A stretch of DNA of 64,000 nt from Steinernema hermaphroditum (Eukaryota; Nematoda; Chromadorea; Rhabditida; Steinernematidae). The translations under genes were made by a program, and so were the position numbers. This document shows positions 26,605 through 30,796 of the stretch, piece after piece (the stretch's first letter is position 1; the number at the start of each line of letters is the position of its first letter). The stretch is from positions 17,174,001-17,238,000 of the forward strand of contig CM059621.1 in NCBI GenBank assembly GCA_030435675.1, given 5' to 3'. Below the pieces are notes generated by a model, which saw nothing but the letters and a program-made list of their open reading frames with translations, ran no database searches and was not told where the DNA came from.

Positions 26605-26750
26605 GGTCGGTGTCTTCGAACATAGACGGTATGAGGTTGCCACCCAGCGTCCGCCAATCAACGCCGAGATCAGAGCGCCAGAGCAGTAAGTCGTTCTACT
26701 GTTGATGCTATCAGCGTGGGGTCTCATGTTCTAGACTTGATGAAGTGTCG
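26605..26750 (+). repeat. Duplicated 5' module of the STAR gene
   Basis: Encodes RPPINAEIRAPEQ, a GT-AG intron, then LDEV. The STAR gene at 29.56 kb begins with KRPPINAEMTAPEQ, an intron, then IDEV. DNA similarity includes the bases before the exon. The frame after LDEV runs without a stop into the signal peptide of the phosphatase-receptor gene at 26811, so this could act as an upstream leader exon or be a relic. Confidence 0.6.
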
Positions 26751-26810: not shown

Positions 26811-29162
26811 ATGCGGTTGCTTCTTGTGACCTCGCTGCTTCTGGCGCTGCGCAAAGCGAACGCACTCCACTGCGCCGAATCTGACTGGATTCATGAGTCT
26901 CGCCCAGGCAGAAATTGCTCAGGACCACCATCCTCTCTGTGTTATGTGATTTATAACGTAAGCAGCAAGACCTCTCGTTACGGTTGCGCATTAAATATGG
27001 TAAGCGTGGAAGTTTATATTGCGTGTAAGTGCATTTTACAGAATCTCCAGGACCCGGCGAATAACGTTTGCCGTGGACGGTCCGTCGATCGCTGTGAGGG
27101 ACCGATGTTTCGCGTTCATGACACCGCATCGATCTGCTGTTGCGATAGCGATTTTTGTAATGAGCCGATAAATGACACGACAGGCGACAAACGTGAGGAA
27201 GTTCTGCTTATTATGCATGAATATTGCGGCTTCTAGAACTGAAAATTTTCCTCAGAGACTCCCGTTTCAATAAGAGCGCACAGTCTCCCAGTATCAGCTT
27301 TGGGGGGATCATCATCGGCGCTATCTGTGGCGTCCTGCTTCTGGGCGTCGTGGTTATAGGCGCCGTAGCGGGTTATCGCCGTTACCAGAAGAAGAGCCCT
27401 TTAATGAAAACACCGAAAATCGTCCGGTATTTCCCTGAAACGAACCAATAGATTTGTGATTGCTCACATTTCAGTGATGAACTGGAACGATCCGCCTTAA
27501 GCTGTGAGCCGAGCACGGAGAATCGGAGCGACGAGAAGAGCCGATGCGACCCTTCCGACATGAAGCCTGTGGAAGAGAAATCTCAACGGAACGCTATTCA
27601 CATCGACTGTACCGAAGATATCGTTCCTGCGCAAATCACCGAAGATGAACAGAATGGTCTCCTAAAGTACATACTTACACTTCCCGGCGTCCAGCTAACT
27701 TTGTTTTTCAGGGCTTTGAAAAAGCAAACCACATCGAAGGGAATTCTGTTTGCTTCGAAGCGTCCGATGATCGAGAAGGTCGTCGCCTACGGGACATCCG
27801 ACGATATTACAGCTATTGGTTCTGTGCGGCAAACTAATGAAGGTGGACAAAGGGGCTATGTACTTGAAGGCTAACAGTAATTTAATTCCAGATAGACCAG
27901 CGGAGTCATTATCAAGTATTTCCTCTAATGTTGCCGATTCACTTCTGGTAAGGATGATTAGAAACGGACCTCGGCAGTTTCCTTTCACCTTCTACGAACT
28001 CACGGAGCTTTTGCACGCGGCGACGAACTGTTTTGCAAAAGAACCATCGCTTCTCGAGGTGCCTGTCCCCTGTGTCGTTTACGGTGATATTCACGGCCAG
28101 TACAGCGACCTCCACCGGTGGTTCAACCTCAACGGATGGCCCCATAAGACCAAGAGCGTCTTTCTTGGTGACTTTGTCGACCGCGGCTCACACGGCATCG
28201 AAGTCGTCGCGCTTCTGGCAGCTCTCAAGGTTGATCTCTATATGAACCTTCTGTCTAATTTAATTAGTTATGTCCTTTAAGCTAGCGTTCCCCGAACAAG
28301 TCTTCATTTGCCGAGGAAATCACGAAGAAGAGTCTCTGAATAAGGCGTATTCGTTCTACGAAGAAGTGTGCCTGCGCTTCCCGTCGTCTCCCGAAACAGG
28401 TCTGCTAAAGACAAGGAACTGAAAAATTACACAAGTAATATTAAGTGGGCAGAGATGGTCCCGTGGTCTACTCGTATTTCAAGAAGCTCTTCATGCAGAT
28501 TCCGCTCGCAGCACTTATCGGTGGGCGTATTCTCGGCATGCACGGCGGCATCAGTCCGAAGATGGAATCGGTGGATGCTATCCGCCGTATCATGCGCCCC
28601 ATCGATGATTTTGAGGTCGGTAGCCTCGCATGTGACATTGTGTGGTCGGATCCGGATACGGACGGCGATCTGGTTGGTGGATTCCGACCAAACTTGGACC
28701 GCGAGCCGCAGCACGGCATCGGCCAGCTATTCACAGCTGAAGCCGTCAAGACAATTTGTCGAAAGCTGAAGATCGACTTCATTATTCGCGGCCATCAGGT
28801 TTGCGTGTATGCAGCGGACAGTGGTAATCGTTCGTTACAGGCTCCGCTTCACGGGTATGCACTCTTCGCCGACGGCTATCTGATGACTCTCTTCTCGGCA
28901 CCCGGATACAAAGGATCAACACAAAAGGACGTGAACATGGGTGCTTGCGTTGAAATTCAAAAGGACATGACGATCACCATCAAACAGGTATGCAACAGTT
29001 CTTCCGCCCAACTAATCAAATTGGTTTCAGCTGAAAGTAAGCGAGAAATTCCGCAAGAACCGCGTTGACGACGTTGAACGGATGAAAGCGAGCAGGAAGT
29101 TAGCCCGAAGGTTGCGGGACATTGCAAAAGAGAGTAAAACAGATTCTTGTGAGAAGGTTTAA
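26811..29162 (+). CDS. Receptor-like PP1-type Ser/Thr phosphatase with Ly6/activin-receptor-like ectodomain
   Basis: Nine exons (26811-26999, 27042-27192, 27258-27426, 27475-27666, 27712-27842, 27892-28229, 28282-28399, 28455-28987, 29031-29162) sum to 1953 nt, 650 residues plus stop, with every phase matching. Order: signal peptide (MRLLLVTSLLLALRKANA); a ten-Cys three-finger-type ectodomain ending CCCDSDFCN, as in activin receptors and Ly6 proteins; a Gly/Val/Ile membrane segment at about residues 132-156 followed by YRRYQKK; a ~120-residue charged linker; then a PP1 catalytic domain. Metal and catalytic motifs are kept: GDIHGQ, GDFVDRG, RGNHE, MHGGISP, WSDPD, RGHQV and LFSAP. Two acceptors are read as CAGAG and some donors are weak, so the joins need transcript support. 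A two-gene alternative would split near 27816. Confidence 0.7.
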
Positions 29163-29562: not shown

Positions 29563-30796
29563 GCGTTCGAACGCCGTCAAGCGTCCACCAATCAACGCTG
29601 AGATGACAGCTCCGGAGCAGTGAGTCACTGGAGCGCCCTCCACAACTGATCTTTTGGTTCCAGAATCGATGAAGTGGCGCAGAAGCTCGCTGTGGTTTCT
29701 CGCGCTCCGATCTGTAGAGCAGCCCGAGGAGAGCCCGATCGCACCAAATCGATCCGAAAGAAAACGATCAAACAAAGGAAGAAGAAGGCAAGCGGAGAGC
29801 GCTTGGATGTGGAAGGAGGAGATGCTGGAGTTGATGAGCAGTTAGTTTATATTAATAGTAGCCAATTAGTTGATTCTCTTCTTTCAGAATCATGGATGAC
29901 GTAGCCGCAGTGCTTAACTGGATGTGTGACTGTGTCGCAGCGCACTACGAACTGGTCGTCCGCCCTGGAGCGTTCACCAGGAAGGAAAAAGCAGTGAGGG
30001 CACGTTCTCGTGCAGGAGAAGGCGACGCTGCAGCTGAAGATGAAGGCACTCCTAATTCCACTCTGAACGTTGCCGATGTGAAAGCACCGAGAAGGAGAGG
30101 CAGGAAGAAAAAGCCTCGTTGTGTATTGTCTGCTGGTGGAGACCAGCAGACAATACTGAATGTTGAAAAGAAGAAACCGCAGAAAGATAACAAGACGCTG
30201 CCGAAGAGAAACCCAAAGAAACGCGCTGATCTCCCGGAAACCCATGGACGACAAAGAGCGCAACAGGCGTGGAGAAATAGGTGTACAGTTTTTCCGAATA
30301 ATTCCCAAGATCATCAATTAGAAAACGTGAGTGGTCTTTGCATCAGACTTTCAATAAAACAGATCTTTAGGTAAAGATCCACAAGCGAACAATCAAGATT
30401 CCGATCCCAGAGCACCCGGATGGCTACAAGTACATTGGTCGCATCCTGGGGCCACGCGGTATCTCGATTCGCGCTATGGAGCGTGACACAGGATGCAAAA
30501 TCGCCATTCGAGGCCGTGGCTCATTGAAAGACCCTGAACAGGAAGAACTTTTACGTAATTGCAGGGGCTATAAGCACCTTAAGGAGAATCTGCACGTTCG
30601 GGTGACGACGGAAGTAGACGCCGGCTGCAGCGCCCGTCTGAAGGCCGCCGAAATGCTCATCAGGGAGCTTCTGAAGCCCGTGGACGATAACTACAAGCAG
30701 GAACAGATGCTGCAGCTCAGCATGATCAACGGAACCTATCGACCCGGATACTCGATTCTACAAGAAGTTGAGGATGATTCTGAATGGGCAGAATAG
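29563..30796 (+). CDS. STAR-family KH RNA-binding protein (GLD-1/QKI-like)
   Basis: Starts MRSNAVKRPPINAEMTAPEQ, with a second exon IDEVAQKLAVVSR and a basic stretch (IRKKTIKQRKKKA). A long third exon from MDDVAAVLNWMCDCV contains Arg/Lys-rich segments, and the KH exon follows: KIPIPEHPDGYKYIGRILGP, RGISIRAMERDTGCKIAIRG, then HLKENLHVRV and the C-terminal extension LSMINGTYRPGY. The GRILGPRG, ETGCKI-like and NGTYR motifs match the KH-QUA2 part of STAR proteins, which bind single-stranded RNA and control splicing or translation. The N-terminal half is not a clear QUA1. Stop at 30794-30796. Confidence 0.8.

What the first reader, a model, noticed from the sequence alone, without database searches (positions are those of the whole stretch)
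26811..29162. A transmembrane receptor-like PP1 phosphatase: activin-receptor/Ly6-type ectodomain joined to a PP1 catalytic domain
Seen: nine exons with GT-AG introns of mostly 42-65 nt join in phase to exactly 650 codons, from a signal peptide through a ten-Cys ectodomain (ending CCCDSDFCN), one membrane segment, a charged linker and a full PP1 core with all metal-binding motifs. Known: TGF-beta-family receptors pair this ectodomain type with a Ser/Thr kinase; PP1 enzymes are cytosolic or nuclear and have no ectodomain. Inference: this would be a receptor Ser/Thr phosphatase, the mirror image of a receptor Ser/Thr kinase. I know of no described protein with this order.
Basis: partly seen in the sequence, partly recalled or inferred. 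Interest (0 to 1): 0.88.

Follow-up and report, generated by a model that had tools for sequence, protein, structure and literature searches.

The report
Nematode cell-surface receptor with PP1 phosphatase
A worm gene joins an activin-receptor-like outer domain, one membrane segment and an apparently intact PP1-type phosphatase in one protein, and the same layout is predicted in several other nematodes, so worms may have a cell-surface receptor that removes phosphate groups where the classic receptors of this kind add them.

Summary
Window 26811-29162 encodes one spliced protein: signal peptide, ten-cysteine ectodomain, one transmembrane helix, conserved juxtamembrane module, complete PP1-type catalytic domain. 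I find ten exons and 646 residues, not nine and 650. The genome is almost certainly Steinernema hermaphroditum; the gene is deposited as a 'hypothetical protein' (P0001). The fusion is unlikely to be a gene-model accident: of 39 nematode family members, 29 have a hydrophobic membrane-type segment 136-235 residues before the catalytic domain, and 12 (eleven genera) also have a CCCxxxxCN ectodomain. A profile of 11 ectodomains finds TGF-beta-type II receptors first among solved structures (E 3e-4); two scrambled controls find nothing. Five PP1 motifs are present in 34 of 39 models. A conserved strand-helix-strand module between membrane and enzyme carries an RVxF-like motif, so the enzyme may be docked in cis on its own linker (inference). 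Eight of ten paper searches were aimed at such a protein; none described it. Best reading: a nematode receptor-type Ser/Thr phosphatase, perhaps an off-switch for TGF-beta-type receptor kinases. Ligand, activity, localisation and transcript are untested.

The parts
26811..26864 (+). Signal peptide, MRLLLVTSLLLALRKANA (residues 1-18); cleavage before LHC is my reading of the AxA rule (recalled)
   Evidence: Sequence; 7 of the 12 ectodomain-bearing models also begin with a clearly hydrophobic stretch, the others do not
26865..27161 (+). Ectodomain, residues 19-103, ten cysteines, ends CCCDSDFCN; split by intron 27000-27041
   Evidence: profile of 11 members matches BMPR2/ACVR2 chains
26811..26999 (+). 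Exon 1
27042..27192 (+). Exon 2 (P0001 uses an acceptor 9 nt later)
27237..27426 (+). Exon 3: stalk, transmembrane segment, basic stop-transfer residues
27308..27364 (+). Transmembrane core IIIGAICGVLLLGVVVIGA (residues 138-156), soon followed by GYRRYQKK
   Evidence: Hydropathy 2.91; AlphaFold2 helix 189-219 of P0001
27475..27666 (+). Exon 4: juxtamembrane linker, first part of the conserved module
   Evidence: conserved in P0002
27712..27842 (+). Exon 5: second part of the conserved module
27584..27817 (+). Conserved juxtamembrane module (residues 214-276, strand-helix-strand), interrupted by intron 27667-27711; no Pfam or PDB relative found
27776..27811 (+). RVxF-like motif KVVAY-GTSDDIT (residues 263-274)
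   Evidence: Family pattern; docking is inferred
27892..28229 (+). Exon 6: start of the PP1 domain, GDIHGQ and GDFVDRG
27927..29051 (+). PP1 homology, residues 297-610 (Metallophos 346-554), interrupted by introns
28282..28399 (+). Exon 7: RGNHEEESLN
28446..28798 (+). Exon 8: HGG motif to RGHQ
28841..28987 (+). Exon 9: LFSAPGY
29031..29162 (+). Exon 10: basic C-terminal helix and stop
28799..28840 (+).

Best explanation
One nematode gene encodes a type I single-pass membrane protein: an outer domain related to TGF-beta-type II receptor ectodomains, one membrane helix, a conserved juxtamembrane module and a PP1-type Ser/Thr phosphatase facing the cytosol. Shown by sequence: the layout, its recurrence in single predicted proteins across nematodes, and the metal-binding and catalytic residues. 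Inferred: the juxtamembrane module docks on the RVxF-side surface of its own catalytic domain, so the protein carries its regulatory subunit built in. The ectodomain then binds a ligand or a co-receptor and places the phosphatase beside phosphorylated receptors or their substrates. My most likely specific target is a TGF-beta/activin receptor kinase complex, making it a built-in off-switch (BAMBI-like outer part, GADD34-PP1-like inner part). My odds by step: layout in one protein about 0.95, active enzyme about 0.85, receptor-type use of the ectodomain about 0.6, TGF-beta pathway target about 0.3.
For: Gene model with nine GT-AG introns and intact frame; deposited P0001 with the same joins except the intron-1 acceptor and start. 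12 of 39 nematode members have the CCCxxxxCN motif plus TM, 29 of 39 a TM-type segment 136-235 residues before GDxHGQ (P0039, which lacks that motif, measured from an estimate); net basic charge after it in 27 of those 29 (exceptions P0027 and P0038). Ectodomain profile (11 of the 12): 42 PDB sequences at E <= 10, the best 19 are activin/BMP/AMH type II receptor chains, one of them an ACVR2B-ACVR1B fusion (best E 2.9e-4, BMPR2), the other 23 uPAR, type I receptors and snake three-finger toxins; two column-scrambled controls gave 0 hits each. Catalytic domain: best PDB match PP1 (E 1.3e-57), Foldseek TM-score about 0.9 to most PP1 chains shown; PP1 residues D64, H66, D92, R96, N124, H125, Y134, H173, R246, H248, Y272 kept in 14 of 14 members compared; five motifs all present in 34 of 39 models and in 10 of the 12 with ectodomain. 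30 members form one clade, SH-aLRT 99, in a quick tree of 42 of the 87 hits. Juxtamembrane module modelled at pLDDT 88-97 in P0001. TGF-beta link: PP1 recruited through Smad7-GADD34 dephosphorylates the type I receptor, and BAMBI interferes with receptor complexes (PMC3333473, passages).
Against: No transcript, localisation or activity data; all relatives are predicted proteins. A search with residues 1-320 found, beyond P0001, only P0002 at E <= 10: the outer half of the other members is too diverged for that search, so their ectodomain homology rests on position and cysteine pattern. AlphaFold2 did not model the S. hermaphroditum ectodomain (pLDDT 33-50) and only moderately the Necator one (64-68 over residues 21-60). 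The ectodomain misses Pfam's Activin_recp cut-off. Five of the 12 deposited models do not begin with a clear hydrophobic signal (P0001, P0009, P0018, P0022, P0036). Models from Strongyloides, Parastrongyloides, Bursaphelenchus and some Aphelenchoides begin just before the TM without ectodomain. PP1's R221 aligns to non-arginine residues in 14 of 14, because of a short insertion after an arginine kept in 39 of 39. P0017 and P0018 lack RGHQ in their models. Only 3 of 35 motif-bearing members fit a strict [KR]x[VI]x[FW]; 26 of 35 fit with Y or L allowed. RVxF-groove residues are changed in strongylids (F257 to R or S, L289 to G), and the Necator module is less confident (pLDDT 48-59 for its second strand), which weakens in-cis docking there. 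The tree carries a long-branch warning. No TGF-beta interaction was tested.
Confidence: 0.6

Rival explanations
1. It is a membrane-tethered PP1 whose ectodomain does not sense anything: the TM and juxtamembrane module place the phosphatase at a membrane, and the small ectodomain serves folding, export or retention.
For: Several lineages have the TM and linker but no ectodomain in their models (Bursaphelenchus P0008, P0012; Aphelenchoides P0011, P0014; Strongyloides P0027; Parastrongyloides P0034). The ectodomain is poorly conserved: 24-36% identity of the ten others to the S. hermaphroditum one.
Against: The ten cysteines keep their order in 11 members from filarial worms to hookworms, and the profile resembles type II receptor ectodomains, which bind ligands (recalled).
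Confidence: 0.27
2. Gene-model artefact: an upstream three-finger membrane-protein gene and a downstream PP1-like gene wrongly joined.
For: Models that join PP1-like domains to unrelated domains occur in the same search (P0042, P0044). No transcript was seen. Variant poly(A)-type hexamers lie in the span (ATTAAA 26990, GATAAA 27167, AATGAA 27403 and 27836); whether any is used is untested.
Against: 12 models from eleven genera share the same order. TM, linker and PP1 are in one frame with conserved linker residues in P0002. A neighbouring pair in this genome (L006) has a stop, AATAAA and about 230 bases between the genes; here there is no such gap. AATAAA is absent from the whole span and from this gene's own 3' end (only at 30353), so its absence alone is weak.
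Confidence: 0.04
3. Receptor-like pseudophosphatase: the PP1 domain binds phosphoproteins or PP1 regulators but no longer catalyses.
For: R221-equivalent position changed by an insertion; GDIHG is GDTHG in several strongylids.
Against: The six metal ligands, H125, R96 and R246 are kept in 14 of 14 members compared (roles recalled), and an arginine just before the insertion is kept in 39 of 39.
Confidence: 0.09

Closest known systems
TGF-beta superfamily type II receptors (BMPR2, ACVR2A/B, AMHR2; nematode DAF-4 recalled)
   Same: Small cysteine-rich ectodomain ending CCCxxxxCN (BMPR2 alignment); one TM and a cytosolic Ser/Thr-modifying enzyme (recalled)
   Different: The enzyme is a PP1-type phosphatase, not a kinase; Pfam finds no kinase domain
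PP1 catalytic subunits (PPP family), including the 316-residue Haemonchus HcSTP-1
   Same: Same catalytic fold and motifs
   Different: HcSTP-1 was reported to lack signal peptide and TM (PMC6054924, passages), as PP1 does in general (recalled). Here all are fused, with a new juxtamembrane module and a short insertion near the R221 position
GADD34-PP1 recruited by Smad7 to the TGF-beta type I receptor, and the pseudoreceptor BAMBI
   Same: The proposed function: PP1 activity, or a kinase-less receptor, that damps TGF-beta receptors (PMC3333473, passages)
   Different: Those are separate proteins; here outer domain and phosphatase are one chain
Receptor-type protein tyrosine phosphatases (recalled)
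   Same: Works like: ectodomain, one TM, cytosolic phosphatase
   Different: Unrelated catalytic fold and amino-acid specificity
Membrane PP2C-type phosphatases such as bacterial PstP (recalled)
   Same: Single-pass Ser/Thr phosphatase with an outer part
   Different: PPM fold, bacterial, unrelated ectodomain

Membership tests
PPP phosphatase, PP1 branch | GDxHG, GDxVDRG, GNHE, HGG and RxHQ motifs with six metal ligands | tested here: met
   34 of 39 family models have all five motifs
PPP phosphatase, PP1 branch | Closer to PP1 than to PP2A or PP2B | tested here: met
   phmmer best PP1 E 1.3e-57, best PP2B-type 5.8e-49, best PP2A 7.8e-44 (60 of 93 sequences shown); of 315 Foldseek matches the 50 shown are PP1 entries except one PPZ chain and one unlabelled ciliary chain
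PPP phosphatase, PP1 branch | Second phosphate-binding arginine (R221, role recalled) in the usual place | tested here: inconclusive
   Aligned residue is not Arg in 14 of 14; an Arg a few residues earlier is kept in 39 of 39
PPP phosphatase, PP1 branch | Phosphatase activity | not testable with these tools
   Needs an enzyme assay
TGF-beta receptor ectodomain (Pfam Activin_recp) | Score above Pfam's curated cut-off | tested here: not met
   16.2 bits against 20.9; 3 of 11 members match at E <= 1
TGF-beta receptor ectodomain (Pfam Activin_recp) | Profile similarity to solved receptor ectodomains beyond composition | tested here: met
   BMPR2 E 2.9e-4; two scrambled controls 0 hits each
Three-finger fold | Beta-rich fold with the three-finger topology | tested here: inconclusive
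   pLDDT 33-50 in P0001, four strands at about 64-68 in P0031; topology not inspected
Receptor Ser/Thr kinase | Cytosolic kinase domain | tested here: not met
   Only Metallophos above cut-off
PP1 regulator with RVxF motif (motif recalled) | [RK]x(0,1)[VI]x[FW] docked in the PP1 groove | tested here: inconclusive
   26 of 35 motif-bearing members fit [KR]x[VIL]x[YFW], 3 of 35 the strict form; groove partly kept; no coordinates to see contacts
Ligand-regulated receptor phosphatase | Surface location, ligand, regulated activity | not testable with these tools
   Inference only

The most novel reading that the evidence does not exclude
Nematodes have a separate class of signalling receptor, a receptor-type Ser/Thr phosphatase of the PPP family, apparently single-copy here, spread over several nematode lineages and seemingly missing from Caenorhabditis. 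It uses a type II receptor-like ectodomain to bind TGF-beta-family ligands or receptors and strips phosphates from the receptor kinases or Smads, with its PP1 domain locked in cis to its own RVxF-bearing juxtamembrane regulator.
Probability: 0.28. Interest if true: 0.95.

Novelty: new variant of a known kind. Interest (0 to 1): 0.84.

Why it matters
Receptor tyrosine kinases have receptor tyrosine phosphatases as counterparts; for receptor Ser/Thr kinases I recall no such counterpart. A conserved nematode protein with this layout would fill that gap, would show PP1 working with a built-in targeting part, and would give worms a signalling receptor unlike any I know in other animals. No Caenorhabditis protein is named among the hits, which could explain why it went unnoticed; S. 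hermaphroditum could be used to test it.

Tried and rejected
Searching the ectodomain plus TM alone (168 residues) gave no hit at E <= 10 among 67 candidates, so I found no free-standing relative. Own-genome search with the N-terminal half (3 candidates scored) found only this gene and an ET-module protein (L003, 33% identity, E 5e-4). I looked for a second TM-PP1 among eight other PP1-like loci (L006-L013, of 96 matching stretches) by hydropathy on the locus + strand: L006, L007, L008, L010 and L012 show hydrophobic open stretches, L009, L011 and L013 none. Only L006 was looked at closely; its hydrophobic exon belongs to a separate upstream gene with its own stop and AATAAA. The other four were not followed, so a second unrelated TM-PP1 is not excluded. 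The weak Phostensin (PP1-binding) Pfam hit on whole P0002 (E 0.013) was dropped because none of 21 linker pieces, P0002's included, showed it. The weak C_GCAxxG_C_C hit lies over the TM and was dropped. Frame errors in my first gene model were corrected (then).

Full report
WHAT IS THERE. The window lies at C1:17174001-17238000 of a 90.6 Mb genome. Its product matches P0001, 'hypothetical protein QR680_019146 [Steinernema hermaphroditum]', at 99%, so the genome is almost certainly that nematode. Ten exons between 26811 and 29162, with nine GT-AG introns of 42-52 nt, give 646 residues and a stop. Four of the nine introns have lengths divisible by three; five of nine, if retained, bring an in-frame stop. 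The deposited P0001 starts 57 residues further upstream and uses an intron-1 acceptor 9 nt later. Its upstream extension includes a stretch that is 81% identical over 54 nt to the region upstream of the next gene, and it would bury the signal peptide, so I prefer the ATG at 26811.

ONE GENE, NOT TWO. A search with residues 1-320 found only P0001 and the S. carpocapsae protein P0002 (E 1.3e-31) at E <= 10 among 3830 candidates; the outer half of other members is too diverged for it. P0002 begins inside the TM but carries TM, linker and PP1 in one frame with linker residues conserved; whether it lost or merely lacks the ectodomain in its model is open. A search with the linker and PP1 part gave 87 proteins at E <= 1e-20, only the 7993 candidates sharing most words being scored. 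I treated the first 39 as the nematode family. By hydropathy (19 residues, mean >= 1.6) 29 of 39 have a TM-type segment 136-235 residues before GDxHGQ, and 12 of 39 have it plus CCCxxxxCN before it: S. hermaphroditum, Panagrellus, Dirofilaria, Onchocerca, Elaeophora, Brugia, Ancylostoma duodenale, A. ceylanicum, Haemonchus, Angiostrongylus, Necator and Aphelenchoides besseyi, eleven genera. A clearly hydrophobic start is seen in 7 of these 12 models (P0003, P0010, P0017, P0023, P0028, P0031, P0038); P0009, P0018, P0022 and P0036 lack one, and P0001 buries it. The 10 members without a TM call are short models of 386-487 residues. Strongyloides, Parastrongyloides, Bursaphelenchus and several Aphelenchoides models begin just before the TM and have no ectodomain. 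Models fused to unrelated domains occur lower in the list (P0042, P0044), so annotation errors happen, but the same error in eleven genera is unlikely. Variant poly(A)-type hexamers do lie within the span (26990, 27167, 27403, 27836); AATAAA does not, nor after this gene's own stop before 30353.

THE OUTER DOMAIN. 11 of the 12 ectodomains have ten cysteines in the same order, not counting cysteines of the leader; the A. besseyi one (P0038) differs and was left out of the profile. Pfam recognises Activin_recp only below its cut-off. A profile of the 11 (A3) against PDB sequences returned 42 sequences at E <= 10. The first 19 are BMPR2, ACVR2 and AMHR2 chains (one an ACVR2B-ACVR1B fusion; best E 2.9e-4); the other 23 are uPAR, ACVR1, BMPR1A and snake cytotoxin- and muscarinic-type toxins, all three-finger proteins as I recall. 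Two profiles from the same sequences with non-cysteine columns scrambled gave no hit at E <= 10. AlphaFold2 left the S. hermaphroditum ectodomain unmodelled (pLDDT 33-50) and gave four strands at 64-68 for Necator. The fold rests on sequence, not on a confident model. In this genome Activin_recp finds six places at E <= 1, three over the cut-off, this gene not among them. L016 has a CCCxxxxCN exon that I take for the type II receptor; L014 has an ectodomain-type frame followed by a TM frame and looks like a type I receptor (names recalled).

THE ENZYME. Metallophos scores 1.5e-31. The nearest solved chains are PP1 (E 1.3e-57; PP2A 7.8e-44), and Foldseek matches PP1 with target TM-scores of 0.74-0.94, mostly about 0.9, in the 50 of 315 rows shown. 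In 14 of 14 members compared, chosen from the 39, PP1 residues D64, H66, D92, R96, N124, H125, Y134, H173, R246, H248 and Y272 are kept (roles recalled). Across all 39, 34 have all five motifs; P0017, P0018 and P0019 lack RGHQ, P0037 lacks HGG and P0039 lacks GDxHGQ and GDxVDxG in their models. The residue aligned to R221 is not arginine, but an arginine kept in 39 of 39 stands just before a short insertion (NLDREPQHGIGQLF in place of NDRGVSFTF). I expect an active enzyme, with this loop as the point to test. Quick tree: 42 of 87 proteins, PP2B as outgroup; 30 nematode rows form one clade (SH-aLRT 99), with filarial worms plus ascarids, strongylids and Strongyloides as subclades; the program warns of long branches, P0038 among them. 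P0040, P0041, P0042 and P0044 fall outside.

THE PART BETWEEN. Residues 214-276 form a conserved strand-helix-strand module (pattern HxDxTDxxVxA ... LL ... PxIxKVITYxTSDDIT), modelled at pLDDT 88-97 in P0001 (residues 271-330), less well in Necator (63 for the first strand, 86-89 helix, 48-59 second strand). No Pfam family is shared by two of 21 members and no PDB match is better than E 0.27. KVVAY, RVITY and KVITF resemble the RVxF docking motif of PP1 regulators (recalled): 26 of 35 motif-bearing members fit [KR]x[VIL]x[YFW], only 3 of 35 the strict F/W form. The hydrophobic groove is kept conservatively in Steinernema, Panagrellus and the filarial members compared but not in strongylids. 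I infer that the module docks on its own PP1 core; the tools gave no coordinates to prove it.

HOW IT MOST LIKELY WORKS. Shown: layout, conservation, catalytic residues. Inferred, in falling confidence: type I topology with the enzyme inside (signal peptide; net basic flank after the TM in 27 of 29 members, P0027 and P0038 excepted); cis-docked PP1; an ectodomain that binds a ligand or co-receptor; TGF-beta receptor complexes as target. The last step leans on known biology: PP1 brought by Smad7-GADD34 dephosphorylates the type I receptor, and BAMBI interferes with receptor complexes (PMC3333473, passages read).

WHAT IS KNOWN. Ten paper searches were run in an open-licence library; eight were aimed at such a protein and two at the genome paper and at PP1 in TGF-beta signalling. 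None of the listings seen describes it; one search found no paper with four phrasings of receptor or transmembrane Ser/Thr phosphatase, and one search listed only 20 of 209. The Haemonchus genome paper counts Ser/Thr and receptor-type tyrosine phosphatases; the passages I saw name no receptor Ser/Thr phosphatase (PMC4053716, passages). The studied Haemonchus PP1, HcSTP-1, has 316 residues and no TM (PMC6054924, passages). Subscription papers and preprints were not searched, so novelty is likely, not certain.

VERDICT. The protein is a PP1-branch phosphatase with a new receptor layout recurring across nematodes. I file it as a new variant of a known kind, because activity and ligand are unknown; if it proves ligand-regulated it would be a new class of receptor.

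Noticed in passing
window 26639-26692 and 29573-29626: 54-nt direct repeat, 81% identical; the second copy lies upstream of a KH-domain ORF and can be read as RPPINAEMTAPEQ, the first falls in the upstream extension of the deposited model of this gene. Looks like a diverged duplicate of a first exon.
   Followed up: partly
window 30371-30796: Neighbouring + strand ORF with a KHDC4/BBP-like KH domain (E 2.2e-13), probably a STAR-type RNA-binding gene (recalled).
   Followed up: partly
L003 (C4:10438942-10442223): Protein frame with four ET-module stretches (Pfam E 1.9e-51) ending in a hydrophobic tail; its repeats share a CCC...CN ending with the receptor ectodomain.
   Followed up: partly
P0040, Nippostrongylus brasiliensis, 924 aa: Predicted protein with protein-kinase domains and a PP1-type phosphatase in one chain; could be a real kinase-phosphatase fusion or a joined gene model.
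   Followed up: no
P0042 (Thelazia) and P0044 (Onchocerca ochengi): PP1-like domains joined to Patched-type and sulfate-transporter-type Pfam domains (names recalled) in predicted proteins; likely joined gene models.
   Followed up: no
G000, whole genome: 96 stretches match the PP1 domain of this gene at E <= 0.001, four of them its own exons: a large PP1-like family in this nematode.
   Followed up: partly
L007, L008, L010, L012: Hydrophobic open stretches near PP1-like exons, not examined; some might be further membrane-linked PP1 genes or just neighbours.
   Followed up: no
P0014 and P0038, Aphelenchoides besseyi: One species seems to hold both a TM-only member and a divergent ectodomain-bearing member with a different cysteine pattern, suggesting duplication.
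   Followed up: no
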